Source: Lunularia cruciata
Lineage: Eukaryota; Streptophyta; Marchantiopsida; Lunulariales; Lunulariaceae
DNA: 64,000 nucleotides
Direction: 5' to 3'
NCBI GenBank assembly: GCA_948567375.1
Contig: OX419760.1
Coordinates: forward strand, 8,432,001-8,496,000
Part shown: positions 1,172 to 38,156 of the stretch, in pieces
Layout: the number at the start of each line of letters is the position of its first letter
Position numbering within the stretch: the stretch's first letter is position 1
Position numbers and translations under genes: made by a program
The notes under the pieces: model-generated
What the model was told of the DNA's origin: nothing
Database searches by the model: none
What the model saw: the letters and a program-made list of their open reading frames with translations, nothing else

Positions 1172-2067
1172 TTGGTCCATTGCCCTAGCATGTGCCTGAA
1201 TTGCGTCGATAGGCACAGGGCTCACAAGTGTCTGAGTGGTGATGCCTATCAAGCGCATCCTACGATGCTCTGCCAAGCCAAGACTCACAATCCAAGTCAA
1301 ATAGTTCAAGTCCATAGCCTGACCTAACACCTGACACTTGGATGCCTCTAACACTACTAGAACAGCGGTAATACCGGTGCAAAAACCCATCACCCGCTCT
1401 CTCTCATCAGCATTGGGATCCACCAACTGCTATAACTATGAGTCTCAAACAAGTCCAGGTCCTCCCTCTCGAAAAGCATGAGAGCTTGGGAAACTCATGA
1501 GTGTGGGAAATGTAGCTCTAGCCTGTCTAACTAGGTTCACCACTTCCATAGATGACCTATCAACCACTACCACTGTCTGAGATTGACGCCCAACATCCAA
1601 GATATCATCAACAAGGATGTGGTCAAGTCACTGAATCCCATCATAAGCACGCTGTAAAACCTCTCTGGGTAAGAGGTTCGTCCAACAAAGACGAAGATGA
1701 TGAACCCGTGACCCCACTCTGGCTGCATCTAACAATACAATAGGCCCCAAGTAAGGAAATGTCTCCTGGTAGGGCCTTCTGGTAACCTCTGACTGTTGAC
1801 ATTGGCAATAACTCTGGATACCAATAGGCCAAGTGTGCTACATGATGTAGAGAGACTCGCCTAATAGTCTCATCTCTCTCTACATACAAGTACCTCTGTA
1901 CTCGTGCTGATCCCACCAAACAACTCCAAAAGGCATATCCCCTCTACAAGATACTGCCAAGCAATGAGTGTGGTATCCAAAGGTGTCAAAGCAATTGCCT
2001 CTGGAGGCTCATCCTCACACTCATCTCCTGATGGTATGAAGGCTCCACTCCAAGCCTGCTGCACCAA
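1172..2067 (-). pseudogene. Cytosine-5 DNA methyltransferase domain of B-minus, internally deleted
   Basis: Seen on the minus strand: motif I as ICLLELFGGIST (about 1904-1946), a motif II-like YLYVERDE, then HHVAHLAYWYPELLP and ALPGDISLLG. The reading then jumps to sequence that matches the region just before motif VIII in B-plus, so the catalytic Pro-Cys motif IV and the ENxP motif VI are lost. Further on come the equivalent of PREVLQRAYDGIQ, the motif IX-like PNADERERVMGF and the motif X-like LGQAMDLNYLTWIVSLGL (about 1267-1329). The order and spacing match C5-MTases, which use motif I/X for S-adenosylmethionine and the motif IV Cys for catalysis. With motifs IV and VI gone and several stops, this copy cannot be active. 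Confidence 0.82.
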
Positions 2068-2148
2068 CTAATCTGCATGCTACAACAATGCTTCCTTTGA
2101 ACTCCACAATGGAACATCCAAGGTAGATGGAACAATCCTACTCATACT

Positions 2149-2909
2149 CTAAAGCCGAGTGATCTCCTCTGGTATTGGAGTATCCTCTGCATGGGTGTTC
2201 TCCTCCAACAAGTCACCAGGCCAAGTAATTGCACCACTGAAAGCTAAAATTGATGATGCCATGGTCCCAGATTGTAGTGAGCCAAGATTGCCACTTCTGA
2301 AGTGTACTGGTAGGCAACATACCCGTCCCTCACCAGACTGCCAACTAGGTCTATAAGAGGCTGTCTCCTCCCAATAGTCAATGCTGAAACCCATGGGGTA
2401 TAACAATGCTCCCCCAACTAGCACATCATATGACTTAGCTATTGTTGCAATAGCCTGAGCTCTCACCACCAAGCTATCAGTTGGATGACCAGGCTGAACC
2501 TGGACAACAAGCTCCCCACGTGTGATGTACTGTGTCAAACCACCACCTAGAGATGTCTAGATCTGAAATGGACACCTCTCCACATCGGTCTTCCGTACTC
2601 TAGACCGACAACTACAGCCTTCCTCAACATAAGAGGCTGCACACCACAGTCTAACAAGACTCTTTGTGGTGTATAGACCTTCCTTGAAACATATGTAAGA
2701 CCTTCCTTGACCTTCCTTGGGTCAACTCCCAATGTAAACATATCACTGGCCAAAAACAAAGGACGCCGTATAATCAGCTGAGCCGCCCCCAACATCATGC
2801 TAGACTCAATCTGTGTATAAGCTGGTGGTTGACTAGCAGGTAGTCCATCATGTACTCCATCACCACCTACCACACCTACACTAGGATGTCTAGGAACCAT
2901 GGATGTCAT
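2149..2909 (-). pseudogene. Retropepsin-like protease region of B-minus
   Basis: Two consecutive open stretches on the minus strand (2909-2547 and 2538-2149) form an aspartic-protease region. The active-site segment reads RVLLDCGVQPLML, where D-C-G replaces the usual D-S/T-G. The second half contains YDVLVGGALLYPMGF, the hydrophobic-hydrophobic-Gly region of gypsy retropepsins, followed by YWEETASYRPSWQSG. In the family this protein would cleave the gag-pol polyprotein. The link to the methyltransferase domain downstream is direct, with no room for another enzyme. One stop separates the two stretches and the Ser to Cys change suggests decay. Confidence 0.72.
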
Positions 2910-2996
2910 CTGTAATGCCTCAGATAGTGTGAAAGACTAGGGAAGTCTGACTTGTCTCCCAACCTCTCCTCTCTGTGGGTCCAACTCCACTGATGC

Positions 2997-3383
2997 TCAT
3001 CTAGGCTTTGGAGCACGTACTACACTCCTAGTCAGTGCTGCAGATGCATCCACCTGTGCTGCTCCGCACATGAAGTCCAAAGCATCTCTATCACCAACAT
3101 ATGAGGTGGAAGTCTCAGCACCCAAATCTGATCTCCTCTGAGCAAGAGCCATACTAGCTAATCTCTCCTCCAACTGCTCAATCCGAGTAGCCATAGCTGT
3201 GTCAAAAGTAAGGATAGGTACTGCACCCCTACTAGGTGTAGATCCTCTACCACCACCTCTACCACCTCTTCCTCCATGAACTAGAGCTCCTCTACTACCT
3301 ACCATAGCAGCCCTACCACTCCGTAACTCCAAGTGTAGGTCAAAACACTGGTCATTAGTGTGACCAAATCTGTGGCAATGCTC
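2997..3383 (-). pseudogene. Gag C-terminal part of B-minus (after the A1 insertion)
   Basis: The minus strand reads EHCHRFGHTNDQCFDLH, most of a CX2CX4HX4C zinc knuckle. It is followed by a Gly/Arg-rich tract (GGRGGRGGGRGSTPSRG) that would bind RNA, then an IRIEQLEERLASMALA-like heptad segment and a linker to the protease. The first Cys of the knuckle lies on the other side of A1 at 11193: A1 inserted within the CEHC codons and left the 4-bp duplication GCTC. The B-plus copy shows the uninterrupted order. Confidence 0.75.
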
Positions 3384-11192: not shown

Positions 11193-11733
11193 GCTCACAC
11201 TACCTCTGTGCTGGCTGTGATGCACCCGAGGTATCAAGTCCACTACCTTGAGTACACTCTCTCCGATGGTGAGGTCCACCACAAGTCCAACAAGCAACAT
11301 CACCACTCGTTGGTTGCTATTGATCCAAAAATGAGCATAAGGGTCTAACTCCACTAGGCCCTCCACTCGCTCTATAGCATCTAGGCTGTCCACCCTATCC
11401 TTGAAAACGAACTGGGCGTGGTGCACTCTATTGCACTCTTGAAGAAGTCACAATTGTAGATGAGGTTTTCCTACCAAATCCAGATGTCACCACTCTCTCC
11501 TCCACCATGTTGAGCTCAATACGCTCAGCCAAACCAAAGACCACTGCCAAAGTAGGCAAAGTAGCCTATAACAACATAACATCACGAGCTCTATGTCACA
11601 ACTCCTTGTTCAATATCCCATACCAAAATTGGACTGCTTGGGCCTCAATAACTCCCTGAGTGAAACTGATCAGCCGCCTCATGCAAGTGTATGCCTCACA
11701 TAGGCACTCTCCAGCCTTCCGCTGGAGCTCTTG
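11193..11733 (-). pseudogene. Gag middle part of B-minus
   Basis: Continues the B-minus gag on the other side of A1. The minus strand encodes a first Cys/His knuckle, CWTCGGPHHRREC, and the first Cys of the second knuckle. Upstream lie the capsid-like stretch and the equivalent of FWYGILNKEL and TQGVIEAQAVQ. The reading breaks at 11733 where the family D LTR sits. B-plus 31080-31630 gives the matching uninterrupted sequence. Confidence 0.75.
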
Positions 11734-13582
11734 TGTGACAACCCGGAAAATATCACTTTTGCGGTAATTGGGTAAGTAAAGTTTGTTCATGCAGAGATAC
11801 AATTCAGAATTGGTCAAATACAAAGTCAAAAGTCACAATGTAGTTCTTCTTGATTGCTTCTTTAATCTCTCAGGTAGAAACTACACCCAAAAGAGAGTAA
11901 CAAGCTCACAATCTTGACAACTTGTCACGAATACACACGCACACATAATCATAACATAGAAAATTCTGTCCAAACAACTCTTGATTGTGATGATTCAGAT
12001 TCTCCCAAAGACGGCACTTCACTGCAAAGGACGATTTTGCTTCAAAATTGTGTTCCACCCCTCCACTGAAGGCACAACTTCCTCGATCAAAATTGCTTCA
12101 CATCAACTTCGTGCTGCACTCACAAATGTAGAATACTACCAACAATACAATTCTTCTCAAACCTATCAAGACATTGCTCCGATGCACTTCACTCAAGATC
12201 AAACACATAGAATGAAGATCAAGGCTACAAAATCCAACATCCACAAACACATTGACTTGCACTTTGGAATTCTCCACACACTCACAAACACAAACATGGA
12301 ATTGACAATCGGAATTAAGCTCAAGCGACAAGCATTGAAAACAACAGTTCGCTTTATCTATCTTCAGAAATATGAATACTGAACAACATAGTACTACGAA
12401 TGCTTCCCTTAAATACTGAAGCAAATGGTGGTTCTTCCTACCTATGCACCGCTTCCTAAATCTCTTCCTAATTGCAGATCCAAACTAACAATCTATCTCT
12501 TCATATCTGCCTCTTCCTATCTCAAAATTGATACTCATCCCGATCTGATGTCTACCTCATCATCGGTTTCCAAATCCGATGATCTTCTTACTACTTCTCC
12601 TCCTTCAGGTATAGCTAATTCTACTAATTCCTTCACTAATTCTACTACTTCTACACTAGGAACTACAATTTCACTAAGGAGTGACTTATCTAACTCTTTA
12701 TCTCTTAACCCACTCTTCTCTAATGTGTCAAATTAAACAGATCCGATGACACATGTATTCCTACTTCTGCAACATCGGGTCTAATTACAATCAATTCCTT
12801 TGCTAATTCTACTATATCCTCATCACAAATTGTAATTGAAAACATGGGTACACTATCTACGCCTTCAATTTGTAACCCACTTTCCCCTAATCACTCATGT
12901 TACTGACTCGAAGACACTTACAATCTGATCTTGCACTCTAGGTTTATTCATTACTGCTACTTCTCCTTCAATTCCTGTTCCATTTTCAATCAAAACTGAA
13001 ATTGAAGTCATGTGTATCCTAACTATCTATTCTTTCTCTATCCTAACTCTCTCTAATGCCTCTGGCAAGATTATTGAAGTCATCTTCATTGCACTCCAAG
13101 GTCCAACTATCTCAAATACAATCATCTTCATCTTGAGGCAAAGAAGCTTCTAACTCGAAGTTGTTTAAACCTGAAGTCTGAAGTCCAAAGACCAAAGACA
13201 TCAACCCGAAGACACTAACTTACTGTATACATCTACTCCCAAAACTTCAAATACTTGTTACTTCTTCTACAAACCTTAAAACTTTGCGATTTTGGTGGCA
13301 ACGGAAAGCCATGAACAAGATGCTTCTAACGAAATGTAGCACGCTTGATTAGGACTTTTGAACATTGAGATATAGCCCCCGCAAGAATCTTGACTTGTAA
13401 CTTCCATTCCTCCTTCGGGTCTGCACTCTTTCAATCCTGGCTGAGTCCGTCTTCATATGACAGAAAGTCAACTTCCTTGGGCTTGATCAAAATACAAATT
13501 TCTTCTCATCTCTTCTCCATTTGGTTTCAGCAAGACATTTCTTCTTCAAAACTCATCCAAAATGAAAAATGTGGGTACCACA
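11734..13582 (-). repeat. Family D solo LTR, internally deleted (1.85 kb)
   Basis: Both termini match the other D LTRs: on the minus strand it starts TGTGGTACCCACATTTTT (13582) and ends GGTTGTCACA (11734). Only about half the ~3.8-kb length remains. The 3' half (11734-12750) aligns with 54199-55130, while most of the embedded reading frame is deleted. It interrupts the B-minus gag between CTCTTG and TGCTCCTC. I could not see a clean target duplication. Confidence 0.85.
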
Positions 13583-14180
13583 TGCATGCTCCTCAACTTT
13601 TTAGTCCGCATTCCTTGGTAGCTCTGCCTCAAACATAGGAAGAACTCCACCATGGGGTTAAACCCCGGTACCACACCACCTCATGCAACGGTACCTCCAC
13701 TCTTAGTAGCACTATCTCCAACTAGTGCGCCTCCACTAGCTCCACCCACACTACTCGAGCTAGAACTCGTAGGTACAGCCGATCTACTCCTGGCCATTGA
13801 GCTTGAAGTGATGGAGATATAGTGTGGAGACCAATACTGTCTCCATACCTCAATCTCCTCCAAACGAGCTCTCCTGAACTCATGGTAGTCATCCATTGGT
13901 GGACCCTCCAAGTGCTAAAACAACCCCTTCAATGCCATGAAGGGTGTGAACAAAGTTGGGTTCCGCATCTGCTACAGATCACACCAACTATTGAACTCCT
14001 GGATGAAGTCATCTAACTCAATGGTACCCATTCTACCAGAGTAACGCCTAGGGCCTTTGGAGGCCCCATAATTCTCATCCATGTCCCACAACAACGGTGC
14101 GCACACACCAAGTGCACTCTCAACTGAATCAGCTCCTGTGTCAAACTCCAACTCAAAGTCAATCTCTTCCCTCACTGGGA
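13583..14180 (-). pseudogene. Gag N-terminal part of B-minus
   Basis: Minus strand from about 14178: REEIDFELEFDTGADSVESA, then LWDMDENYGASKGPRRYSG, MGTIELDDFIQEF, and DDYHEFRRARLEEIEVWRQY (13911-13681). This matches B-plus 30508-31030 closely. The B-plus start codon ATG is GTG here. A Ser-rich segment (SSSSSVGGASGGALVG) precedes the point where the D LTR interrupts the frame. Presumed gag matrix/capsid region; decayed. Confidence 0.7.
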
Positions 14181-17462: not shown

Positions 17463-17466
17463 TTTT

Positions 17467-17484: not shown

Positions 17485-17503
17485 CTCTCTAGAAGGCAAG
17501 ATA

Positions 17504-18796: not shown

Positions 18797-18798
18797 TG

Positions 18799-18963: not shown

Positions 18964-19031
18964 TAATAGAGTGAGAGAAAAGAAAAGAGAAAAAAAAAAT
19001 TAAGAGAAAAGAAAGATAGTGAGGGGTTAAG

Positions 19032-22000
19032 ATGGGGAAACTTCCGGTTTTCTTTGGCAAGGATGGAGAAGATGTGGAGGCCTTTGTGAGAGACTTCAAG
19101 AGAGCTTGCATAGGAAACAATGAGAGGAGGAAGAATGAGTGGGCCTCATTATTACCAGATTTCTTTGAGGATGCAGCACTTACATGGTATGAGTCAGAAT
19201 ACCAAAAGAGAGAGAGGAGAGAGGGGGAAGAGGAGTCTTGGGAGACTTTGACTTCAGCACTCATTGAGAACTTTCTTCCTGATGAGAGTTATGAGAGATT
19301 GATGAGTGAGGTTACATTTCTCAAGCAAGGAGATGGAGAGAAAGTGAGGGTCTATGTGGAAAGAGTGGAAAAGTTGGAGTCCAGATTTCGCATAGTGTTG
19401 AGGAAGGGTGGGGATGATGTGGAGACTACAATGATTGGCATAGGGGCTATGCTCACCAAGAATTTTGTGGGAGGATTGAGACCACAAATTAGAAGCAAGG
19501 TGAGATATGAGAAACCTTCTTCCAAGGTTGAAGCTATCAAGATCGCAATTCGTATGGAGGAGAGTTTGGAAGGGGATGAGAGTGATTTGGTGGTGAAGGA
19601 GGTTGTGCATCCTCCTCAAGGCTACAAGTATGGTGGAACTTCTGATACTTTGGTGACAAGGGTTGCACCACAAGTAGTAGTTGCTCCAGTTCTTGCACCT
19701 CCACCAAAAGATCCACTCCAAACCATCACAGAACAACTTGCGGATCTCAAGATCAATGTGGTGCAACTATGGGAGAAGAGAGAGGTGGATCAGAATGTAG
19801 GGAGAGGACCTAGGAGTTATGGAAACTATCCATATAGAGGAGGCCAACCAGCCAACAATTTCAATGATAGAAATTGTTTTGGTTGTGGAGGAAGAGGCCA
19901 TATCCAAAGGAATTGCCCAAATTCCACTTACCATGGAGGAAGGGGTTATGAGGGAGCCAATAGAGGGAAAGAGGGAGGTAGTGAAACCCAAGTGGCTCCT
20001 AATCCCAACAAAGGTAAGGGGATAGCATCCATATATGTGGTTGAGAGCAAGTATGAGAAGGGAGAGTGCTCAAACTCCAAGGGTCTTAATTTGGAGCTTT
20101 TGGCACAAGAGAAGAAGAGAGCTCGTTTTGCAGAGGATGTTCACTCTTCTCAAGGATTCACTTCAAGCAAGGATACTCCTATGTCTACTAGGAGCACTCA
20201 CACCTCAACACCATCAACAACAAAGACTCCAAGGAAGAAGTTGGGGATGGAGGACTTCTTGATCTCAAAGCAACAATGGAACTACAATGTGTTGGAGGAT
20301 GTTGGTAGTCACAAGGCTAACATCACAGTGGGCCAATTAATTGCTTTGAACCCTACCTTGAGAAAGGAGCTTAGAGGTGGTTTGAGTTCTACAAGGAGCA
20401 AAAAGAAGAAGAAGGCAAAAGTTCCAGTATCAATGGGGGTGGTGGATGCCAAGCCAGCACCATGGGAGGCTTGTGAATATGCCTCCAAGATTGATGTGAG
20501 AGTGAATGGTCACAACATCAAGGATGCATTGGTTGATGGAGGATCAGCAGTGAATGCCATGTCAGAAAGGTTGATGAAGAAGTTGGGTATGATACCCTCA
20601 AGACCTTCAACATTTGTGGTGAGCATGGCAAACAAGCAACAAGTTCGACCAGTAGGGGTGATGGATAAGGTGGTAGTTTCAGTTATGGGAGTTCAAAATC
20701 TCATGACTTTCCAAGTCTTGAAGGATTCAAGCTATGACTTACTTCTTGGGAGGCCATGGTTGAGAGCAGCACGCACAACTGATCGATGGCACAAAGGGTA
20801 CTTGAGGATTGGGCCATCAAACCATAGAGTCACTGTTCCTGTGACTAACACCACCAACACTTCACATTCAGATACCCCATCTTCTAATTATTGGGAATCA
20901 GATTCTGAAGAAGGAGCTTCAGGTGTGGACACAAGCATGGAAGAGGAGACTTCCACGGAGGAAGATGAATCTGAATCTGATTCAGATGTGTATCCCTTGT
21001 GTGCTATGGATTTTGCACCTAAGCCAGAGGTTTTGAAGGACCCAGATAAATCACCATTGACACTTGAGGAGGTAGAGAGAAGGTTATCTACCCTCAAGTA
21101 TGGCCCAAATGTTACCAAGGAGGAGAAGGTGAGATTTGAGGAGATTTTCCGCAAGTTCATCCATGTGTTTGCTTTTAGTTACAAGGATTTGAAGAAAGGC
21201 AACTTGGAGGAGCACAAGATAGAGGTGGAGTCACATGCAAGACCAATCCGCCAAAAGCAACGTCGCATTAGCCCACCAATATCTTTGGTTGTGAAGGAGG
21301 AGATTGATAAGCTCAAGGAGGCTGGATTTATCTTTGAGGTGGAGAATTCAGAATGGGTGTCTCCAATTGTCATTGTGAAGAAAAAGAATGGCAAGCTTCG
21401 GGTATGTGTGGATTACAAGAAGCTTAATGCTGTTACCAAGAAGGACTACTACCCATTGCCATTCATTGATGAGATCTTGGAGGAGGTTGCAGGTCATGAG
21501 AGGTACAGTTTTGGAGATGGTTATAGTGGATATAACCAAATCAAGATTGCACCAGAGCATCAACAACTCACCACATTCACCACACCTTGGGGAACTTACG
21601 CTTTCAAGGTCATGCCTTTTGGGCTTTGCAATGCTCCAGCCACATTCCAACGGTTCATGAACAAGGTATTTGAACCTTTCATTGGGAAATTTGTGAGAGA
21701 TTTCATTGATGACTTTTGTGTCTATGGGAGCAAGGAGGAGCACTTTGAGCACCTAATCAAAGTCTTGCAACGCTTGGATGAGGCAAATGCATCACTCAAC
21801 CGAGAGAAGTGCATTTTTGGATGTGAAGAAGGTCTACTTTTGGGGCACATCATCTCCAAGGATGGAATAGCAGTTGATCCTGAGAAGGTGAGGAAAATCT
21901 CAGACCTTCCATTCCCTTCAAGCTTGACAAAGTTACGCCAATTCTTGGGAATGGTTGGGTACTATAGGAGGTTCATCTTCTCATTTTCCAACAAGGCTTA

Positions 22001-23858
22001 TGCATTGACCATCTACATGAAGAAGGGTGTAGATTACATGGTGATTTTGGAAGACAAGGAGGCTCTCAAAGCTTTTGAGGAGCTCAAGCAATCCCTTGTT
22101 GTAGCTCCAATTCTTGCTAAACCTGATTGGAGTAAGCCTTTCATCCTCTACACTGATGCTTCTAATGTAGCTATAGGATGCACTCTTAGTCAATTAGACC
22201 AAGATGGGCATGATCATCCAATAGCTTATGCTAGTAGGCAGATGGTTTCAGCAGAGAAGAACTACTCTGTCACAGAGAGAGAAGGGTTGGCAGTGATCTT
22301 TGGTCTCAAGAAGTTTAGACACTACTTGATTGGAGGGAAAGCCACAATTGTCACGGATCACAAGGCTTTGAAGTACATCTTCAACAAGCCTAATGTTGAA
22401 GGGAGACTAGCAAGGTGGATGATACTCTTGTCTGAGTATGACTACACAATTGAGGATAGGCCAGGAAAGAAACATGCAAATGCTGATTTGTTATCTAGAG
22501 CCTATGATCATGATGGAGATGAGCCAGTAGATGATTCCTTCCCGGATGAGGAGCTCATGACAATCTCAGTCACTCAAGAGATTCCAATGGAGTACAAGGA
22601 GATTGTGGATTTTGTGACAAGAGGTAACTATCCAGAAGGGATGCATGCTAGGGAGAGGAAGGCCCTTGCAGCAAGATCTAGACCTTACACAATGGTGGAG
22701 GATATTCTTTTTCACCAAGGAGCAGATGGTCTACTTCGAAGAGCAGTGGGTAAGGAAGAGTCTATCCTACTCATAAAGGAGTTTCATGAAGGTTTAGTAT
22801 GTGGAGGACACTTTGCAGGAAAGGTGACTGCTTTCAAGATTCTAGATGCAGGTTACCATTGGAGAGGGATTTTCAAGGATTGTCTTGATTATTGCAAAAC
22901 TTGTCATGTTTGTCAAGCTTTTGCTAGATCGTCTACATCCACTCCACCACTTAGATCAATTCCATTGCTAGGACCTTTTGAGAAGTGGGGAATTGATTTT
23001 GTAGGACCTCTCAATAGAACCCCAAGGAACAATCGGTACATTGTGGTAGTTACTGATTACCTTACCAAGTGGGTTGAGGCTAGACCATTGAGGGACAAGA
23101 ATGAAGATGAAGTGGGTAGATTTCTTTATGAACGCATTATCACTAGGTTTGGATGCCCTTTGGAGTTGGTTTCTGATAGAGGAGGAGAGTTTACAGGAAG
23201 CATTACTACAGCCATGCTACGACATTTCTCTATCACACATAGAGTAACTACATCCTATAAGCCAAATTCCAATGGCTTGGCAGAGAGAACCAATCAGACC
23301 TTGTGCATGATGTTGGCCAAAGATGCAGAAATGGAGGGGGCTAAACATCATTGGGACAAGAGGATTCATGCAGTTTTGTGGGAGTATAGGACAACCATGA
23401 AAACTTCCACTGGATATTCTCCATTCCAATTGGTGTATGGTATTGAGTCTACCTTACCTATTCACTTTGATCTTCCTACCTTCCAAAGCATTCATAGGAG
23501 ATTGAAGAAAGCACAAGGAAGTGATGCAGGGAAGTCAAGGAAGGATCAACTCATGGAGTTGGAAGAGGCAAGAGCAGTTGCTATGGTTCGAGTGGAGCAA
23601 GCCCAAAGGAAACAAAAGGAGAGCTATGACAAGAGGCAAGGCAAGAAGAAGGTGGAGCCTTTCAAAGAAGGTGATTGGGTAATGTTGTTTGATTCCATTC
23701 GATTCAAGAGAGTGCAAAAGAAGTTTTTGCCTAAGTACTTTGGACCTTTCATAGTAGAGAAGGTGTGGGGCAATTACACCTATGATCTCAAGGAGTTGGG
23801 AGGAAGACACTTTGATAGGATTAACCATGATAAGTTGAAGATGTACCATAGAAGGTAG
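19032..23858 (+). CDS. gag-pol: Gag-pol polyprotein of A2, intact (1608 aa)
   Basis: Single frame from ATG to TAG. Domains: Gag 1-~200; zinc knuckle C282-C285-H290-C295 (CFGCGGRGHIQRNC); Ser/Lys-rich linker; retropepsin with Asp502 in VDGGSAVN and closing LLLGRPWL; acidic linker (SDSEEGASG, EEDESESDSD); RT with VCVDYKKLN, MPFGLCNAPATFQ and FIDD at 891-894; RNase H with Asp1042 (YTDAS) and ADLLSRAYD; integrase zinc domain ending at C1291/C1294 (CKTCHVCQ); catalytic D1322, D1382, E1418 (exact D35E spacing); GPF-containing C-terminus and no chromodomain. All enzymes needed for reverse transcription and integration appear present. It acts in virus-like particles and then the nucleus. Gag and pol are one frame, with CGA where three other copies have TGA. 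The retropepsin D-G-G variant is shared by the whole family. Confidence 0.95.
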   Translation: MGKLPVFFGKDGEDVEAFVRDFKRACIGNNERRKNEWASLLPDFFEDAALTWYESEYQKRERREGEEESWETLTSALIENFLPDESYERLMSEVTFLKQGDGEKVRVYVERVEKLESRFRIVLRKGGDDVETTMIGIGAMLTKNFVGGLRPQIRSKVRYEKPSSKVEAIKIAIRMEESLEGDESDLVVKEVVHPPQGYKYGGTSDTLVTRVAPQVVVAPVLAPPPKDPLQTITEQLADLKINVVQLWEKREVDQNVGRGPRSYGNYPYRGGQPANNFNDRNCFGCGGRGHIQRNCPNSTYHGGRGYEGANRGKEGGSETQVAPNPNKGKGIASIYVVESKYEKGECSNSKGLNLELLAQEKKRARFAEDVHSSQGFTSSKDTPMSTRSTHTSTPSTTKTPRKKLGMEDFLISKQQWNYNVLEDVGSHKANITVGQLIALNPTLRKELRGGLSSTRSKKKKKAKVPVSMGVVDAKPAPWEACEYASKIDVRVNGHNIKDALVDGGSAVNAMSERLMKKLGMIPSRPSTFVVSMANKQQVRPVGVMDKVVVSVMGVQNLMTFQVLKDSSYDLLLGRPWLRAARTTDRWHKGYLRIGPSNHRVTVPVTNTTNTSHSDTPSSNYWESDSEEGASGVDTSMEEETSTEEDESESDSDVYPLCAMDFAPKPEVLKDPDKSPLTLEEVERRLSTLKYGPNVTKEEKVRFEEIFRKFIHVFAFSYKDLKKGNLEEHKIEVESHARPIRQKQRRISPPISLVVKEEIDKLKEAGFIFEVENSEWVSPIVIVKKKNGKLRVCVDYKKLNAVTKKDYYPLPFIDEILEEVAGHERYSFGDGYSGYNQIKIAPEHQQLTTFTTPWGTYAFKVMPFGLCNAPATFQRFMNKVFEPFIGKFVRDFIDDFCVYGSKEEHFEHLIKVLQRLDEANASLNREKCIFGCEEGLLLGHIISKDGIAVDPEKVRKISDLPFPSSLTKLRQFLGMVGYYRRFIFSFSNKAYALTIYMKKGVDYMVILEDKEALKAFEELKQSLVVAPILAKPDWSKPFILYTDASNVAIGCTLSQLDQDGHDHPIAYASRQMVSAEKNYSVTEREGLAVIFGLKKFRHYLIGGKATIVTDHKALKYIFNKPNVEGRLARWMILLSEYDYTIEDRPGKKHANADLLSRAYDHDGDEPVDDSFPDEELMTISVTQEIPMEYKEIVDFVTRGNYPEGMHARERKALAARSRPYTMVEDILFHQGADGLLRRAVGKEESILLIKEFHEGLVCGGHFAGKVTAFKILDAGYHWRGIFKDCLDYCKTCHVCQAFARSSTSTPPLRSIPLLGPFEKWGIDFVGPLNRTPRNNRYIVVVTDYLTKWVEARPLRDKNEDEVGRFLYERIITRFGCPLELVSDRGGEFTGSITTAMLRHFSITHRVTTSYKPNSNGLAERTNQTLCMMLAKDAEMEGAKHHWDKRIHAVLWEYRTTMKTSTGYSPFQLVYGIESTLPIHFDLPTFQSIHRRLKKAQGSDAGKSRKDQLMELEEARAVAMVRVEQAQRKQKESYDKRQGKKKVEPFKEGDWVMLFDSIRFKRVQKKFLPKYFGPFIVEKVWGNYTYDLKELGGRHFDRINHDKLKMYHRR

Positions 23859-23897
23859 AGAGACCTTCACTTTGAGGACAAAGTGAAAACTTAGTCC

Positions 23898-23906
23898 GGG
23901 GGTAAA
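23898..23906 (+). other. Polypurine tract of A2
   Basis: GGGGGTAAA directly before the 3' LTR at 23907; identical to A1. Confidence 0.65.
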
Positions 23907-24585
23907 TGTAACACCCATTTGTGCATGTGTGTGGTATTGTGATATTTAGCTTGGTATTACAAGTACTTAAGAGATATTATTTATATAGAGATAAAGGATG
24001 GTTCTATATTAGTCATGGTTAGCTAAAGTTAGTCATAGCTAAGATAGATGGGACCTTACTTTAGAGGAAGTAGAAAAGATGAGCACCACTATTTTGGATT
24101 TTAGTGTGTTGACTTGGTATTATTCCTAGGTGTTTGGCTTTGGGGAAAGAGTTGAGAACTCTTGGGCCCGCAAGCCTTTTTGTTTTGGATTCTTCTTTAG
24201 TCCAAGGATAGCCCATGTGAAGGAATCCTTGCTTTAGTGGTTGGGTCAAGATAAGGGGAATATGCCCATGTGAATGGATATTCCTTTCTACTTTTTGACT
24301 TTACTTGACTTTTAGTCTAGTAACTTGAGTTACTACGGTAATTAGTAACTTTGGTACGTAACTATTTCACAAGTATATAAACAAGGAGTGAGGAGGTACT
24401 CATCATCCTTTCATTTGCAACTATCTCTCTCTCATTGAGTTCTCTAGTGAGCAATGTCTTGAGTCTTGGAGTGTTAGCCTTGGAGGAGTATGATGGAGTT
24501 GGGGTTCCTTGCCTTCTTAGTCCATGGTGCGCTACCATAATAGCCATCAGAGGTTCATCCTGAGTGAGAGACAGGCCGGCTCACA
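23907..24585 (+). repeat. 3' LTR of A2 (679 bp)
   Basis: Nearly identical to 16784-17462. Followed by GTGC and then the resumed A4 gag (GTGCATCCTCCACAAC). Confidence 0.96.
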
Positions 24586-28706: not shown

Positions 28707-30507
28707 TGTCACGCCATTTGTAGTGTCGCATCTAGATGCTCGGACATTGGAGTTCCAATGATACTAGTTAGAGTTGTTCCAGCAATTTCTCAAAGACTAC
28801 TTTCCGACGGTTTGATTTTGTGTTTGGGGTACTGACTTCACGGTGAGGCCCACCGTCACTTTGCACCGTTTGCACCATCAGTGGGACTGTTAGGGTTCAG
28901 ACCTAGCTCGAGTCCAAGGAGTATACTTTTGAAGTGCAGCTCCAAAGAGCTCAATTCTCTGATGTTGAGCCTCCAAGTTCCTGGCTATGGTGGACAAAGG
29001 CCGGTGAGTGTCACCTGGATTCTCTTGGCTAGAGTGGGTGGGGCTTGACTATAATCAGTGCCCAATTGCTGGCAATTTATAGAGTGATAGATCAAGTAGT
29101 GATTTGAGTTGAGTTGAGTTGAGTTGAGAGTGGTAAACAATCTGATTATATCAAAGAAGTGAAATTAAAGGGAAATTGGGTATAGGAACTTTGAGTGTTG
29201 GTGGTATTTCCAAGCTCGGTGGATCGTTGGTAGGTCAATTGAAATTCAGTTTTTCCCTGGTGTGCAGAAGTTTGTTGCTTGATGGAGATTTGGTAGTAAG
29301 GCAGATGGTGTGCGAAAGCACTGGCTAATTTTTGAGCACAAAAGGAGCAAATTTTGAGCAGTGGTTATGATTTTGAGCTCTGGAGGTGAAGGCATGACCA
29401 ATTTGTTGCAAGTTGGGCTCAAAAAGTAAAATTGAAGGTAGATTTGAGAAGCTATTCTTGTGAATTTGTGATTTGGAGAAACTCATGTTTTTAATTTGGC
29501 TCAAGTGAAGAGTTAGCGGGGGATTTGGTGGTCAGCCAAATTTAGGGTTTATGTCAGATTTTGGCTGGATTTGGAGGAGTTTCACTATTTGGCCAAATTT
29601 GGAGGGGTTTTGCTAATTTGGAGGACTTTCGCCAAATTTTGGAGGAGGTTCAAAGTGGCAAGAAGAAAGGCTTCATTTAGGCATTAAGAGGCTTTGAGGC
29701 ATAGAGCTATGAGAGGCTACAAAGGCCTAGAAGCTAGCTAGTTTAGAGTAGATATTGTTCATTGGTTGGCAAAATCTGCCTTTATTGCTAGATTGTGCGC
29801 AACAGGGTTTGACCCCTAGATCTCTTGTTCCTAGATTGGTGCCCTAGCCAACTGGTCCACCCTCACTTGTTGTCCTGGTGACTGTACCACTGTTATCTAT
29901 ACACTTGTAGATTTCGCTAGGAGAGGTAGTTTGATCCCATTCTTGGTGATCATGGTAGCTTAGGACTTAGATACAACCTTTTCTTATGTCAAATGCCAAA
30001 TGGTGGTAGAGTCAATCTTGTGTTGTTTTATGAGATGGAGGTTTTTGTTTAGATTTCTAGTGATTGGACCCCCTCCATTCTCTGCTTCTTGTTTGTGCAC
30101 CACGTTTGTGTGAGATGCCATGAATTTTGAGCGTTGGTGCTCTGGTGTGCTCTTGGTAGTGAGGCTAGAGTGATGACCAGTCAGACTATCTTTGTTTCTC
30201 TCCGGTGAGGTAGGAAGTGATGACTTGCAGACCGTAAGGGTGCATGTTGTGATGGCAGGTTATAGGTTGCCCTTTCCCCTAGTGTAGTTATCTTGGTTAG
30301 AGTTACATTAGTGGGTGGTGCTTAGTTGGTGTTTGCACTTGGTGGTGTTGGCACTTGCGGTTGCAATTTGTGGTTCCGGTTTGTGGTTGCGGTTGTGGTT
30401 ACTTTGTCACAACGGAGTTCTTTGGGGATTCCAAAAGAGATAGCCTTGTAGCCCGCAATGGGTTTACTCGGAGTGGTACTTGGTATCAGCCTATATCTCA
30501 GGTCCCA
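28707..30507 (+). repeat. 5' LTR and leader of B-plus
   Basis: 28707-29153 (TGTCACGCCATTTGTAGTG...AATCTGATTAT) matches the 3' copy at 37603-38050. Beyond 29153 the two diverge, so the LTR end is uncertain: it may be about 450 bp, or up to about 1.7 kb with a truncated 3' partner. A TGGTATCAG word at 30481-30489 could be a weak initiator-Met primer site. No coding domain seen between 29154 and 30507. Confidence 0.65.
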
Positions 30508-31990
30508 ATGAGTGAGGAGATTGACTCTGAGTTGGAGTTTGACAGAGGAGTTGATTCAGTTGAGAGTGCACTTGGTGTGTATGCACCGTTGTTGTGGGAC
30601 ATGGATAAGATTTATGGGGCCTCCAAAGGCCCTAGGTGTAACTCTGGTACAATGGGTACCATTGAGTTGGATGACTTCATCTAAGGGTTTGATAGTTAGT
30701 GTGATCTGTAGCAGATGCGGAACCCGACTTTGTTTACACCCTTCATGGCATGGAAGAGGTTGTTTTAGCATTTGGAGGCTTTGCCAATGGATGACTACCA
30801 TGAGTTTAGGAGAGCTTATTTGGAGGAGATTGAGTTATGGAGATACTTTTGGTCTCCAAACTATGTCTTTATCACTTCAGGCTTGATGGCTAAGAGTAGA
30901 TTGGTAATACCTACAAGTTCTAGCTTGAGTAGTGTTGGTGGAGCTAGTGGAGGTGCACTAGCTGGAGATAGTGCTACTACGAGAGGAGGTACCGCTGCAA
31001 GAGGTGGTGTGGTACCGAGTTTAACTCCATGGTGGAGTTCTTCTTGTGTTTGAGGCCAAACTACCAAGGAGTGCGGATTAACAAGCTGAGGAGCTTGCAA
31101 GAGTTCCAGCGAAAGGCTGGAGAGGGCCTACACAAGGCATACACTCGCATGAGGTGGCTGATCAGTTTGACTCAAGGAGTTACTGAGGCCTAAGCAGTCC
31201 ATTTTTGGTATGGGATATTGGACATGGAGTTATGATGTAAAGTTTGTGATCCTATGTTGTTGCAGGCTACTTCGCCCACTTTGGCAGTAGTCTTTGGTTT
31301 GGCTGAGCATATTGAGCTCAACATGGTGGAGGAGAGAGTGGTGACATCTAGATTTGGTAGGGAGATCTCATCCACGGTTGTGACTTCTTCTAGAGTGTAG
31401 TAGAATGCACCACGCCCGGTTGGTTTTCAAGGACAAGGTGGATAGCCTAGATCCTATGGAGGGAGTAGAAGGCCTAGTGGAGTTAGACCCTTACCTTCAT
31501 TTTTGGGTTAGCAGTAGCCAATGAGTGGTGGCGTTGCTTGTTGGACTTGTGGTGGACCTCACCATTGTAGAAAGTGTACTCAAGGCAATGGACCTAATAC
31601 TTCTGGTGCATCATAACCAGCATAGAGGCAGAGTGAGCATTGCCACAGATTTGGTCACACTAGTGATTGATGTTTTGACCTACACCTGGAGTTACAAAGT
31701 GGAAAGGCTTCTATGGAAGGTAGTAGAGGAGCTCCAATTCATGGAAGACAAGGTGGTAGAGGTGGTGGTAGAGGATCTATACCTAGTAGGAGTGCAGTAC
31801 CTGCTCTTACTTTTGATATACCTATGGCTATTCGGATTGAGCAATTGGAGTAGAGATTGGCTAGTATGGCTATTGCTTAGAGGAGATCAAATTTGGGTGC
31901 TGAGGCTTCTACCTCATATGCTGGTGATAGAAATGCTTTGGACTTCATGTGCAGAGCAACACATCTATAGTAGTGACTAGGAGTATAGTA
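30508..31990 (+). pseudogene. Gag of B-plus, decayed
   Basis: Starts MSEEIDSELEFDRGVDS. Stops occur from 30682 on, but the frames can be followed: DDYHEFRRAYLEEIELWRYF, a Ser/Gly-rich segment, a capsid-like part (PNYQGVRINKLRSLQEFQRK, YTRMRWLISLTQGVTEA, FWYGILDMEL). Knuckle 1 is CWTCGGPHHCRKC (31539-31577). Knuckle 2 has lost its first Cys and gained a stop (SEHCHRFGHTSDxC, 31632-31673). The Gly/Arg tract GGRGGGRGSIPSR follows. The B-minus copy supplies the undamaged second knuckle pattern. Confidence 0.78.
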
Positions 31991-32519: not shown

Positions 32520-33620
32520 TGAGGGGGATTTTCCATTTGGTGGGACCTTCAAGGAAGGTTTATACACCACAGAGAGTCTTGTAAAACTCTGGTGCGCAAC
32601 CCCTTATGTTGGGGAAGGCTGTAGTTGTTGATCTAGAGTTACGGAAAGCCAATGTGGAGAGGTGTCCATTTCAGATCAAACATCTCTAGGTGGTGGTTTG
32701 ACACAATACATCACACGTGGAGAGCTTGTTGTCCAGGTCCAGCCTGGTCATCCAACTGATAGCTTGGTGATGAGAGCTCAGGCTATTGCAACAATAGCTG
32801 AGTCATATGATGTGCTAGTTGGGAGAGCTATGAGCCGGCCTGTCTCTCACTCAGGATGAACCTCTGATGGCTATTATGGTAGCGCACCATGGACCAAGAA
32901 GGCAAGAATCCCCAACTCCATCATACTCCTCCAAGGTTAACACTCCAAGACTCAAGACATTGCTCACTAGAGAACTCAATGAGAGAGAGATAGTTGCAAA
33001 TGAAAGGATGATGAGTACCTCCTCACCCCTTGTTTATATACTTGTGAGATAGTTACGTACAAAAGTTACTAATTACCGTAGTAACTCAAGTTACTAGACT
33101 AAAAGTCAAGTAAAGTCAAAAAGTAGAAAGGAATATCCATTCACATGGGCATATTCTCCTAAGCATGTGGTCTTATCTTGACCCAACCACTAAGTCAAGG
33201 ATTCCTTCCCATGGGCTATCCTTAGACTAAAGAAGAATCCAAAACAAAAAGGCTTGCGGGCCCAAGAGTTCTCGACTCTTTCTTCAAAGCCAAACACCTA
33301 GGAATAATACCAAGTCAACACACTAAAATCCAAAATAGTGGTGCTCATCTTTTCTACTTCCTCTAAAGTAAGGTCCCCTCTATCTTAGCTATGACTAACT
33401 TTAGCTAACCATGACTAATATAGAACCATCTTTTATCTCTATATAAATAATATCTCTCAAGTACTTGTAATACCAAGCTAAATATCACTATTCCACACAC
33501 ATGCACAAATGGGTGTTACAGAGCAGTGTTATACTCCATAGGTTTCAGTATTGACTATTGGGAGGAGACAACCTCTTATAGACCAGGTTGGCAGTCTGGT
33601 GAGGACGGGTATGTTGCCTA
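32520..33620 (+). pseudogene. Retropepsin-like protease region of B-plus
   Basis: Active-site stretch at 32566-32610 reads YTPQRVLxNSGAQPLML: the catalytic Asp is Asn (NSG at 32585-32593) and the codon before it is a stop. Then comes RGELVVQVQPGHPTDSLVMR and ESYDVLVGRA, cut by the minus-strand solo LTR at 32829-33520, and resuming YSIGFSIDYWEETTSYRPGW. Same layout as B-minus 2149-2909. Inactive. Confidence 0.7.
32829..33520 (-). repeat. Family A solo LTR, minus orientation (692 bp)
   Basis: Minus strand TGTAACACCC...GCCGGCTCATA. Flanked by GAGC on both sides (32825-32828 and 33521-33524), a 4-bp target duplication inside the B-plus protease. Keeps the 13-bp segment missing in A2. Confidence 0.92.
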
Positions 33621-33984
33621 CCAGTACGCTTGAGTAGTGGCAGTCTTAGCTCACTACAGTCCGGGACCATGGCAGCATCAGTTTTAGCTTTCAATGGTGC
33701 AGTTACATGGCTTGGTGACTTTTTGGAGGGGAATGCCCATGTAGAGGATACTCCAATACCAAAGGAGATCACTCGGATTTGGAGTACGAGTGGGATTGTT
33801 CCATCCACCTTGGATGTTCCATTGTGGAGTTCAGAGGAGGCATTGCATCAACATGTAGATTAGTTGGTGCAATAAGCTTGGAGTGGAGCCTTCATACCAT
33901 CAAGAGATAAGTGTGAGGATGAGCATCCAGAGTTGATTACTTTGACACCTCTGGATACCACACTCATTGCTTGGTAGTATCCAA

Positions 33985-35640
33985 TAGAGGGGATATGTCT
34001 ATTGGAGTTGTTCGGTGGGATAAGCACCGGACTAGCTGTGGTATTACAAGCGGGTATATGAGTATAGAGGTACTTGTATGTAGAGAGAGATGAGACTGCT
34101 AGGTGAGTCTCTCTGCATCATGTGGCACACTTGGCCTATCAATATCCGGAGTTATTACCGATGTCAGAAGTTAGAGGTTACCAAAAGGCCCTACCAGCAA
34201 ACATTTCCTTACTGGAGGCACATGATATGGAGAGACATGGGCCTATTCACTTGGTGATTTCTAGATAGCCATGTCAGGGACATACATGTGCTGGTAGAGG
34301 TTTGGGTCTTCAAGATCCTTGTTTTGGTGTGTTTTGGGAGATATTATGGATACGATGACATCTCTAGGTTCATCAGTCCATTTCTCCCGCTTACCTTTTG
34401 GAGAACATTCCTTTGATGGGTGATTCTCATACCAGAGTGAAGGCAAGTACACATCAAGTCCATTCTTGGATGGGACCTATTGTATTGTTACATGCAGCCA
34501 GAGTGGGATCTGTAACACCCATTGTGCATGTGTGTGGTATTGTGATATTTAGCTTGGTATTACAAGTACTTAAGAGATATTATTTATATAGAGATAAAGG
34601 ATGGTTCTATATTAGTCATGGTTAGCTAAAGTTAGTCATAGCTAAGATAGATGGGACCTTACTTTAGAGGAAGTAGAAAAGATGAGCACCACTATTTTGG
34701 ATTTTAGTGTGTTGACTTGGTATTATTCCTAGGTGTTTGGCTTTGGGGAAAGAGTTGAGAACTCTTGGGCCCGCAAGCCTTTTTGTTTTGGATTCTTCTT
34801 TAGTCCAAGGATAGCCCATGTGAAGGAATCCTTGCTTTAGTGGTTGGGTCAAGATAAGGGGAATATGCCCATGTGAATGGATATTCCTTTCTACTTTTTG
34901 ACTTTACTTGACTTTTAGTCTAGTAACTTGAGTTACTACGGTAAATAGTAACTTTGGTACGTAACTATTTCACAAGTATATAAACAAGGGGTGAGGAGGT
35001 ACTCATCATCCTTTCATTTGCAACTATCTCTCTCTCATTGAGTTCTCTAGTGAGCAATGTCTTGAGTCTTGGAGTGTTAGCCTTGGAGGAGTATGATGGA
35101 GTTGGGGTTCCTTGCCTTCTTAGTCCATGGTGCGCTACCATAATAGCCATCAGAGGTTCATCCTGAGTGAGAGACAGGCCGGCTCACAGATCATGGGCTC
35201 ATCATCTTTGTCTTTGGTGGACAAACCTCTTACCCAGAGAGGTTCTACAACGTGCTTATGATGGGATTCAATGACTTGGCCACATCCTTGTTGATGATAT
35301 CTTGGATGGTGGGCGTCAGTCTCAAACAGTGATAGTGGCTGATAGGTCACCTATGGCATTGGTGAACCTAGTTGGACAGCCAAGAGCCGCATTTCCCACA
35401 CTCATGAGTTTCCCAGGCTCTCATGCTTTTTGAGAGGGAGGACCAAGACTTGTTTTGGACTCACAATTATAGTAGTTGGTGGAGCCCAACGCTGATGAGA
35501 GAGAGCGGGCGATGGGTTTTTTCACCAATATTACCACTGTTCCAGCAATGTCAGAGGCATCCAAGCGTCAGGTGTTAGGTCAAGCTATGGACTTGAACTG
35601 TTTGACCTGGATTGTGAGCCTTGGCTTGGGGAGCAGCATA
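33985..35640 (+). pseudogene. Cytosine-5 DNA methyltransferase domain of B-plus
   Basis: Motifs in the canonical order, mostly one frame: I, ICLLELFGGISTGLA (33993-34034); II, RYLYVERDE; III-like, ALPANISLL; IV, a Pro-Cys box PCQGH (Pro 34269-34271, Cys 34272-34274) preceded by HGPIHLVIS; V-like, GLGLQDPCFGVFWEIL; VI, YLLENIPLMGD (Glu-Asn at 34401-34406); VIII, AARVGS, cut by a solo LTR, resuming WAHHLCLWWTNL; IX, PNADERERAMGF (35483-35518); X, LGQAMDLNCLTWIVSLGL (about 35574-35630). These are the SAM-binding (I, X) and catalytic (IV Cys, VI Glu) hallmarks of DNA C5-MTases. Stops include one just before the Pro-Cys box. The domain lies between protease and RT in the same direction, and the second copy (B-minus) has it in the same place, so it is part of the element. 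The nearest known precedent is C5-MTases reported in gypsy elements of charophyte algae and dinoflagellates. Confidence 0.88.
34511..35188 (+). repeat. Family A solo LTR (678 bp) inside the methyltransferase
   Basis: TGTAACACCC...GGCTCACA with the 4-bp duplication GATC (34507-34510 and 35189-35192). Carries the same 13-bp deletion as A2, so it belongs to the young subfamily. It splits motif VIII of the methyltransferase. Confidence 0.94.
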
Positions 35641-36233
35641 GGATGTGCTTGATAGGCATCACCACTTGGACACTTGTGAGCCCTGTGCCTATTGAGACAA
35701 TTTAGGCACATGCTGGAAGGCAATGGACCAAGTGGACATGGTATTCTTGGGACACAGCCAATAGCTACTAGGGGGAGTGGTCTACTTGGAGTCCATCCAG
35801 GTGAGCATGGGCTACTTGGATTACACCCTTGGTCCACTTGGGATGCAGCTAGAGGACGTGTGGAGCTTGCAGCCAGAGTGGAGGGAGTTTTTCACACAGA
35901 GGTTGGGACCTCTAGTGGGTAGGGGCATGACACTATTGCTCCTAAGGGCCCATTGTAGCAGCCAATCAGTACGTCTTCCACTCCTACTACAGTTATAGAG
36001 GATACTTGGGAGCCAGATCTTGGACCCACGCTTACTAGAGAAGAAAGACGGAGGGTCTGGAGGTTCTTGAGGAGCCATACAAGTTGTTTTGCCTTCAATA
36101 TGAAGGATTTGGGTGCTTTGACGGGACCTGGAATATGGATTGAGCTGACTAGCAATACACTAGTTTTCTGACGTCTTTATTGATATAGTGAGATAAAGAG
36201 GACGTTGATTCAGAGCCGGAGTAGTGACCTTTT

Positions 36234-37150
36234 TGAGGCTGGTTTGGTGGAGATTTCACATGGAGAGTATGCGTCAGCAACAGTGATGCCAACCAAGAAG
36301 GATATGCATGGCAACTACATAGATAGGCGGATGTGTAGAGATTACCGTCCTATCAACCAATAGACCAGGGCTGATCGGTATGCCATGCCTACACCGGAGG
36401 AGATTTGTGATGCAATTGGGCATACAAAGGTCTTCAGTACTTTGGATCCTCTTAGTCATTTGGGTGCACCAGCTGAGGTTTTGACTGATCAGGGTACAGA
36501 GTTCTTGGGGGAGTTTCAGGGCTTGTGTGACAAGGATTTGATTGATCACCGTACTACCTCCCGAGATAGCGGAGAGAGTGATTTTGACGGTGAAGAGAGG
36601 ATTGCAAAAGTATGGTTTGCATAGAGGCCACTTGGGAGATTGGGATCTCTACTTATCTTGGTTGGCCATGGGCTATCGGTTCAGCCGGCAAGCCTCCTTA
36701 GCATCCTTCTCTCCGTACTTTCTACTCTATGGACAAGATCCAGATTTACTAGTAGCCATTTGTCGAGATGCTATTGTAGTTTTGGACTTGGATGACCCCA
36801 ATGTATGGATGAGTGCATGTTCTCAATGGGTAGAGATCTTTTGGAGAGTGATGCCAATGGCCTTTGAGAACTTGGCGATTGCTCAGCATAGAGATAATTT
36901 ACGCTATGTTACCATTCAAGGAGGAGGTTATAGACCCTTGATCCGTCAATTTCATCAAAGAGACTGTATATCTACAGCAGACAACACCAATGATACTTGA
37001 TGTTTCGACAGGCCATACTATCTTGAAAGTGCGTGAGGTTTTGACATTTGGAGTCCTTGTGTAAGAAGGACATGATGGTGTTGTTTGGAAGGATCATATG
37101 TGCAATTGTGCACCATGCCACCTCCCAAACATTGATGGTACTATGGACCC
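36234..37150 (+). pseudogene. Partial RT fused to integrase core of B-plus
   Basis: RT start: EAGLVEISHGEYASATVMP, RRMCRDYRPIN, RYAMPTPEEICDAIGHTKVF then STLD. At about 36445 it jumps to integrase: LGAPAEVLTDQGTEFLGEF (second catalytic Asp at 36487-36489), then IAERVILTVKRGLQKYG (catalytic Glu at 36572-36574) and GDWDLYLSWLAMGYRFSRQA and SFSPYFLLYGQDP. A C-terminal module TILKVREVLTFGVL and EGHDGVVWKDH and CNCAPCHLPN follows. The RT catalytic YxDD box, RNase H, the integrase zinc domain and the first catalytic Asp are gone. The join is a large internal deletion rather than a designed fusion. Confidence 0.8.
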
Positions 37151-37492: not shown

Positions 37493-38156
37493 GATTGTGG
37501 CACTTTAGAGTTTATGTATGACTTATGTGTGAGTTGTGCTTCTATAGTGTATGATGTTGACAATGATGTATGTTGTGTATAGATGTATATACGCATGACA
37601 ACTATCATGCCATTTGTAGTGTCACATCTAGATGCTCGAACATTGGAGTTCCAATGATAGTGGTTAGAGTTATTTCAGCAACTTCTCAGAGACTACTTTC
37701 CGACGGTCTGATTTTGTGTTTGGGATACTAACTTCACGGTGGGGCCCACCATCACTTTTCACCATTTGCACTGTTGAGTGTGCCATTAGTGGGACCATTA
37801 GGGTTTAGACCTAGCTCAAGTCCAGGGGGTATACTTTCAAAGTGCAACTCTAGAGAGCTCACTTCTTTGATGTTGAGCCTTCAAGTTCCTAGCTATGGTG
37901 GACAGAGGCCGGTGAGCATCACCTAGATTCTCTTAGCTAGAGTGGATGTGGCTTGATTGTAATCAGTGTCTAATTGTTAGCAGTTTATAGTGTTACAGAT
38001 CAAGTACTGATCTGAGTTGAGTTGAATTGAGAATGGTAAACAATCTAATTATTGTGGCACTTTAGAGTCTATGTATATTTTATGTGTGAGTTGTGCTTCT
38101 ATAGTGTATGATGTTGACAACGATGTATGTTGTGTAGCAATGTATATATGCACAAC
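37493..38156 (+). repeat. Aberrant 3' end of B-plus: repeat, LTR part, repeat
   Basis: 37603-38050 matches the 5' LTR start (28707-29153). It is bracketed by two copies of a ~106-110-bp sequence (37493-37602 and 38051-38156, each starting TGTGGCACTTTAGAG). The element ends at the second copy, directly before the target duplication ATTGG. 37327-37492 is 3' non-coding sequence. Confidence 0.75.

What the first reader, a model, noticed from the sequence alone, without database searches (positions are those of the whole stretch)
33985..35640. Cytosine-5 DNA methyltransferase built into a plant Ty3/gypsy retrotransposon
Seen: motifs I (LELFGGISTG), II (YLYVERDE), IV (PCQGH), VI (LLENIP), VIII (RVGS...WWTNL), IX (ADERERAMGF) and X (LGQAMDLN) occur in canonical order between protease and RT of family B. 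Both family B copies, in opposite orientation and at different sites, carry the domain in the same position, so it belongs to the element rather than to a chance insertion. Established: C5-MTases use SAM (I/X) and the motif IV Cys; such domains have been reported in gypsy elements of charophyte algae and dinoflagellates. Inference: an element that methylates DNA could silence or mark its own copies, or escape host control. I know of no well-described case in land plants.
Basis: partly seen in the sequence, partly recalled or inferred. Interest (0 to 1): 0.93.

Follow-up and report, generated by a model that had tools for sequence, protein, structure and literature searches.

The report
Jumping gene carrying a DNA methyltransferase
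A many-copy family of jumping genes in a liverwort-like plant genome carries its own DNA-methylating enzyme and a probable histone-reading domain, with relatives in other mosses and liverworts; the two copies in this window are dead, but the family shows that an element normally silenced by DNA methylation can carry the silencing tool itself.

Summary
Two copies of Ty3/gypsy family B, in opposite orientation, carry a cytosine-5 methyltransferase (MTase) domain after the protease. Both are dead: B1 has 10 in-frame stops and a solo LTR (duplication GATC) inside the MTase and lacks its RT core; B2 lacks the stretch with motifs IV to VI. The domain is DNMT3-type by profile and by fold. It is native to the family: of 14 genome copies chosen by Gag, 10 have it full length, 3 are uninformative and 1 is a larger deletion. 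Relatives occur in Marchantia, Calypogeia and Sphagnum. So the MTase is probably made at Gag level. DNMT3-bearing gypsy elements are published for a charophyte alga; I found no report for land plants. New variant of a known kind. What the enzyme does (methylating the element's own DNA) is inferred. Selection within this genome failed its control, CpG loss is not enriched, and host DNMT genes could not be searched.

The parts
28707..29149 (+). 5' LTR of element B1 (matched part; begins TGTCACGCC)
   Evidence: 84.5% identical over 453 columns to 37605-38052 in direct orientation; same start in B2 near 14730 on the minus strand
30601..31919 (+). Gag of B1
   Evidence: tblastn of Marchantia P0016, 50-65% identity
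32677..33603 (+). Protease region of B1, interrupted by a solo LTR
   Evidence: tblastn of P0016 to 32677-32844 and 33523-33603
32829..33520 (-). Solo LTR of family A inside the protease region, 4-bp duplication GAGC
   Evidence: 96.9% identical to an A LTR
33984..34510 (+). MTase part 1: motifs I, II, IV (Pro-Cys-Gln), VI; 6 in-frame stops
34511..35188 (+). Solo LTR of family A inside the MTase; target duplication GATC; absent from B2
   Evidence: 99.6% identical to the LTR at 16784
35191..35640 (+). MTase part 2: motifs VIII, IX, X; 4 in-frame stops
35956..35964 (+). TAG-CAG-CCA: UAG-CARYYA type readthrough stop between the Gag-protease-MTase frame and the RT frame
   Evidence: In frame with both neighbours; 22 of 24 genome copies and L004 have such a motif at this junction
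35968..36447 (+). RT N-terminal part; RT core, RNase H and first part of integrase are missing after it
   Evidence: tblastn of L004 ORF2 residues 11-170; the next match begins at residue 740
36451..36982 (+). Integrase, C-terminal part
   Evidence: tblastn of L004 ORF2, 54-63% identity
37176..37320 (+). PHD finger (frameshifted)
   Evidence: Matches the Pfam PHD (PF00628) stretch of L004 ORF2
37603..38052 (+). 3' LTR of B1 (matched part)
1187..1901 (-). MTase of copy B2; about 247 bp with motifs IV-VI missing
1903..3383 (-). B2: end of Gag region, protease and protease-MTase linker
   Evidence: tblastn of P0016
3384..11192 (+). Full-length family A element nested in B2 (duplication GCTC); no MTase found in it
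11194..14082 (-). B2 Gag, further interrupted

Best explanation
What it is: a Ty3/gypsy LTR retrotransposon family with the order LTR - Gag - protease - DNMT3-type cytosine-5 MTase - (leaky UAG stop) - RT - RNase H - integrase - PHD finger - LTR. The window holds two dead copies. How it most likely works: (1) most ribosomes stop at the UAG and make Gag-protease-MTase; a few read through and make the fusion with RT, integrase and PHD (motif and frame shown, readthrough inferred); (2) the MTase is therefore made at Gag level, is packaged in the particle, and methylates cytosines of the element's own cDNA or new insertion de novo, with SAM and the motif IV cysteine (inferred); (3) the PHD finger behind the integrase steers integration to a histone state, most likely H3 tails unmethylated at K4 (inferred); (4) copies arrive marked in already silent chromatin, which limits harm to the host and lets the family persist (inferred). 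Identity as a DNMT3-bearing gypsy family: about 0.95. Readthrough expression: about 0.75. Self-methylation: about 0.4.
For: Homology. Class: a profile of 20 relatives scores DNMT3A 54 bits, tobacco DRM 25, HaeIII 25, DNMT2-type tRNA enzyme 21, HhaI 19 (60 of 62 matches shown). Model of the L004 MTase pLDDT 89.6, pTM 0.89; the 50 listed PDB matches (of 182 with E<=0.001) are all DNMT3 entries, best E 2.7e-18, target TM 0.81. Native to the element. Order: four copies read at 9.9 kb, found by their MTase, have integrase and PHD behind it in 4 of 4 and RT in 3 of 4. Leaky stop: L004 has two open stretches in one frame, Gag-protease-MTase (1162 aa, 5' end open) and RT-RNase H-integrase-PHD (1047 aa), parted by one TAG-CAA-TCA; TAG-CARYYA lies at the same junction in 22 of 24 copies, in frame with RT in all 22 and with the MTase match in 15; 22 such motifs at the junction against 6 elsewhere in the 30 loci, both strands, 211 kb; UAG-CARYYA is the type I readthrough motif of plant viruses (PMC5382211, passages). 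Conservation: against Marchantia P0016 the MTase has the highest identity of the compared ORF1 regions in 8 of 9 comparisons, e.g. Calypogeia 76% against 41-50% for linkers and tail. Motif IV Cys present in 16 of 17 aligned relatives; the 17th lacks the stretch. Precedent: two SymbioDIRS DNMT3 domains methylate CG de novo in yeast (PMC5890265). PHD: best PDB matches include CHD4, PHF12, KMT2D, UHRF1, KDM5B, PHF21A; that several of these read H3 unmethylated at K4 is recalled, not from a call.
Against: No activity, expression or methylation data. The charophyte gypsy DNMT3 gave no methylation in the same yeast assay, called inconclusive by its authors. CpG loss, expected if copies self-methylate, is not enriched: B pieces 0.22-0.30 observed/expected, window mean 0.23, family A without MTase 0.09-0.15, another gypsy region 0.45; ten further MTase stretches 0.37-0.47. 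dN/dS of 0.42 among 22 copies equals that of a shifted frame, so it shows no selection. In one relative (P0024) the protease (48%) is marginally more conserved than the MTase (47%). The genome copies with the leaky stop are close kin, so they are not 22 independent cases.
Confidence: 0.6

Rival explanations
1. The MTase acts mainly on host or competing DNA or on silencing signals (counter-defence): it changes where 5mC is laid, so that copies stay expressed.
For: The family is repeated: all 40 candidates that the tool scored matched, in each of two probes (5886 and 6306 first-look candidates are unverified). Family B is less CpG-depleted than family A.
Against: No targeting evidence; DNMT3 domains add rather than remove methylation; high copy number has many causes.
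Confidence: 0.2
2. The MTase methylates RNA (genomic RNA or primer tRNA) rather than DNA.
For: Proposed for SymbioLINE in PMC5890265. A Gag-linked place puts the enzyme next to packaged RNA.
Against: Profile and fold are DNMT3 rather than DNMT2 (54 against 21 bits).
Confidence: 0.1
3. The domain is a passenger or has a structural role, without enzymatic use.
For: Both window copies are dead; no stop in the domain in only 4 of 30 MTase-selected copies and 3 of 10 full-length Gag-selected copies; variable columns by codon position are nearly flat, 124/103/116 of 333 each. Three related rows have Glu in place of the motif IV Pro.
Against: Motif IV Cys and other motifs are kept across mosses, liverworts and environmental relatives, and the MTase is the most conserved compared region of ORF1 in 8 of 9 comparisons.
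Confidence: 0.15
4. A host DNMT gene fragment was captured or inserted by chance at this one place.
For: None beyond the deadness of the two copies.
Against: Same place in two copies here, in ten Gag-selected copies genome-wide, and in relatives of three other bryophyte genera.
Confidence: 0.01

Closest known systems
KnitGypsy-Dnmt3 of the charophyte alga Klebsormidium nitens (de Mendoza et al. 2018, PMC5890265)
   Same: Ty3/gypsy domain set with an unrearranged DNMT3-type MTase inside an element ORF.
   Different: Reported in the Pol ORF of an element with DIRS-like repeats. Here direct LTRs, MTase before the leaky stop on the Gag-protease side, and a PHD finger; the word PHD does not occur in that main text. 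Its sequence was not returned by my searches, so common descent is untested; P0023, P0024 and L004 (environmental) could be closer to it.
SymbioDIRS-Dnmt3 and SymbioLINE-Dnmt of dinoflagellates (PMC5890265)
   Same: Retrotransposon-borne C5-MTase; the DIRS versions are DNMT3-like and active on CG in yeast.
   Different: Other retrotransposon classes (DIRS, LINE) and other hosts.
RT-RNase H-MTase-integrase(-PHD) polyproteins P0027-P0029 (environmental; host unnamed, a green alga is my guess)
   Same: MTase 34-35% identical to the Marchantia one; RT in one clade with Marchantia and L004 RTs, support 100/100; PHD finger in P0027, P0028 and P0030.
   Different: MTase between RNase H and integrase; motif IV reads Glu-Cys-Gln.
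Plant and animal host DNMT3 genes
   Same: Catalytic domain fold and motif order.
   Different: No DUF3444, PWWP or ADD among Pfam families at E<=0.01 in 14 relatives (several partial) and two L004 ORFs; carried by a retrotransposon.

Membership tests
DNMT3-type C5-MTase domain | C5-MTase motifs in unrearranged order I to X | tested here: met
DNMT3-type C5-MTase domain | Closer to DNMT3 than to DRM, DNMT1/CMT, DNMT2 or bacterial enzymes | tested here: met
   Profile scores (no MET1/CMT chain among the 60 of 62 shown) and Foldseek
DNMT3-type C5-MTase domain | De novo methylation activity | not testable with these tools
   No bench data
Host DNMT3 gene | DUF3444 (plants, PMC6453930) or PWWP/ADD (animals) | tested here: not met
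   Not listed at E<=0.01 in 14 relatives and two L004 ORFs
DRM | Rearranged motif order | tested here: not met
Ty3/gypsy LTR retrotransposon | Direct LTRs; Gag, protease, RT, RNase H, integrase in this order | tested here: met
   L038 whole and B1 in part; L004 order (no repeats of 40 bases or more in its held stretch)
KnitGypsy-Dnmt3 | DNMT3 in the Pol ORF and DIRS-like repeat structure | tested here: not met
   MTase ends the Gag-protease frame at a TAG before RT in L004 and in the genome copies; direct LTRs in B1. Annotated Marchantia models P0007/P0008 join MTase and RT and may be gene-model artefacts
KnitGypsy-Dnmt3 | Same RT/MTase clade | not tested
   Its sequences were not returned by any search
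Type I stop-codon readthrough | UAG followed by CARYYA, in frame with both products | tested here: met
Type I stop-codon readthrough | Measured readthrough product | not testable with these tools
   No expression data

The most novel reading that the evidence does not exclude
An old land-plant retrotransposon lineage carries an epigenetic writer (a DNMT3-type MTase made at Gag level before a leaky UAG stop) and a histone reader (a PHD finger on the integrase side). It writes silencing marks on its own copies as they integrate into chromatin with unmethylated H3K4. It has been inherited since before mosses and liverworts parted, has multiplied in this liverwort-like genome, and might add to the host's own DNA methylation.
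Probability: 0.3. Interest if true: 0.85.

Novelty: new variant of a known kind. Interest (0 to 1): 0.65.

Why it matters
DNA methylation is a main brake on plant transposons, yet here a many-copy element carries a DNMT3-type enzyme and seems built to make much of it. Published reports of such elements that I found come from a charophyte alga and dinoflagellates; [quoted passage not shown] Finding them in several bryophytes, with relatives in the model liverwort Marchantia polymorpha, makes the question of why an element would methylate directly testable. It also warns that DNMT counts in bryophyte annotations may include transposon proteins.

Full report
Setting. The window is a nest of LTR retrotransposons. 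It lies at C10:8432001-8496000 of a 565.8-Mb genome in 74 contigs. The 40 listed MTase and 40 listed Gag matches fall on eight contigs, C1, C2, C6, C7, C8, C10, C11 and C12, whose lengths sum to about 558 Mb. Family A's polyprotein is nearest to Marchantia polymorpha, 82%. I infer a liverwort or another bryophyte as host; no tool names it.

The two copies. B1 (+ strand) runs from an LTR at 28707 to one at 37603-38052. B2 (- strand) has its LTR start near 14730 and runs down to about 1172, with a full family A element nested in it. In both, the MTase follows the protease. B1's MTase is split by a solo A LTR with GATC on both sides, and B2 shows the empty site. The three other A insertions that I checked also have 4-bp duplications: GCTC, GTGC, GAGC. 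B1 has 10 in-frame stops in the MTase and has lost its RT core; B2 has lost about 247 bp with motifs IV and VI. Neither copy can make the enzyme.

What the domain is. The first half alone finds 15 proteins among 158 candidates: Sphagnum troendelagicum at E 1.1e-49, and Marchantia polyproteins, two of which (P0007, P0008) are annotated with MTase, RT and RNase H together. A search with a Marchantia MTase region gave 27 proteins (only the 7988 candidates sharing most words were scored), including Calypogeia fissa, Sphagnum fallax and environmental contigs. Pfam DNA_methylase passes its cut-off in 7 of 7 relatives and in 5 of 7. A profile of 20 relatives places it with DNMT3. A confident model of the L004 domain has DNMT3 entries in all 50 listed PDB matches, of 182 with E<=0.001.

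It belongs to the element. A 516-base MTase probe matched all 40 candidates that the tool scored; 5886 passed the loose first look, which is not a count of copies. Of the 30 loci fetched (the window's own copy among them), 22 keep one full-length frame, 4 of those have no stop, and 19 of the 22 have Pro-Cys-Gln-Gly. To avoid choosing by the MTase itself, I took 14 copies by Gag (ranks 2-15 of 40) and read the expected place: 10 have the full-length MTase, 3 of them without stops, 8 with Pro-Cys-Gln-Gly. Of the other 4, two lie inside a nested family A element, one shows family B pol in the other orientation, and one joins Gag directly to integrase and PHD, losing protease, MTase and RT together. 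None of the 14 lacks the MTase alone. Of four 9.9-kb stretches around MTase hits, all four have integrase and PHD behind the MTase and three have RT; one shows the whole order between LTRs, though with its frames broken.

A PHD finger and a leaky stop. L004, a contig binned with a cyanobacterial MAG (CADCWO010000201.1) but most likely eukaryotic, has an open Gag-protease-MTase stretch and, in the same frame after one TAG, an open RT-RNase H-integrase-PHD stretch. The stop reads TAG-CAA-TCA. At the same junction of family B, 22 of 24 copies in which both sides were found have TAG-CARYYA (26 loci were read, two of them longer reads of copies already counted); it is in the RT frame in all 22 and in the MTase frame in 15. 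In B1 it is TAG-CAG-CCA at 35956, in frame with both sides. The motif occurs 22 times at the junction and 6 times elsewhere in the 30 loci, both strands. UAG-CARYYA is the type I readthrough signal of tobamoviruses and others (PMC5382211, passages). So the element most likely makes much Gag-protease-MTase and little of the fusion with RT and integrase. The PHD finger is also in B1, frameshifted; its closest solved relatives are PHD fingers of CHD4, PHF12, KMT2D and UHRF1.

Descent. RTs of MTase-bearing elements (two Marchantia rows, L004, P0027-P0029) form one clade (100/100) against 25 other gypsy RTs; these others were drawn by similarity to family A, so MTase-less members of this clade may be unsampled. 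MTase and protease trees both group Marchantia, Sphagnum and, more weakly (82-83 bootstrap), P0021 with P0022 (P0023 and P0024 were the chosen outgroup of the protease tree). This suggests long joint inheritance; horizontal transfer is not excluded. The window copy's own place is unresolved.

Selection. Across species the MTase has the highest identity of the compared ORF1 regions in 8 of 9 comparisons, which suggests purifying selection over long times. Within this genome I could not show it: the dN/dS of 0.42 is matched by a shifted frame, and third positions are hardly more variable.

Mechanism. Shown: domain order, conserved active site, leaky-stop motif in frame. Inferred: readthrough, packaging with Gag, methylation of cDNA or new copies, PHD-guided integration. 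Against a mutational footprint of self-methylation: family B is less CpG-depleted than MTase-less family A and close to the window mean.

Literature. De Mendoza et al. 2018 (PMC5890265; I read parts 1, 2 and 4 of 7 and passages) report DNMT3 in a Klebsormidium gypsy element and DNMTs in dinoflagellate DIRS and LINE elements; two DIRS versions methylate CG in yeast, the gypsy one gave no methylation, called inconclusive. PMC6338049 (passages) says such elements are absent from land plants 'such as tracheophytes'. PMC12344493 (passages) mentions DNMT3 in LTR and DIRS elements as reported in streptophytes and dinoflagellates. PMC5784723 (passages) lists five Marchantia MTases, none DNMT3. PMC6453930 (passages) describes plant host DNMT3 with DUF3444. 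Searches whose listings showed no report for land-plant elements; most papers of subscription journals are not held, and supplements could not be read.

Noticed in passing
window 16784-24585 (open frame 19023-23858): A family A gypsy element with one open 1611-codon polyprotein frame and LTRs 99.85% identical (676 of 677): a recent insertion, with a 4-bp target duplication (5 bp is usual for gypsy elements, recalled).
   Followed up: partly
P0027-P0030 (environmental proteins): Gypsy polyproteins with the MTase beside integrase, Glu-Cys-Gln in place of Pro-Cys-Gln in motif IV and, in three of the four, a PHD finger; host unnamed.
   Followed up: partly
L004 (CADCWO010000201.1): A retrotransposon contig, most likely eukaryotic, sits in a MAG labelled as a cyanobacterium; it could be mistaken for a bacterial methyltransferase.
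   Followed up: partly
window 330-813: Tandem array of a 44-bp unit beside the broken end of B2.
   Followed up: no
window 55590-57436 and 60593-62445: Large inverted repeat pair (arms of 840 nt at 78% and 429 nt at 79%) of unknown nature.
   Followed up: no
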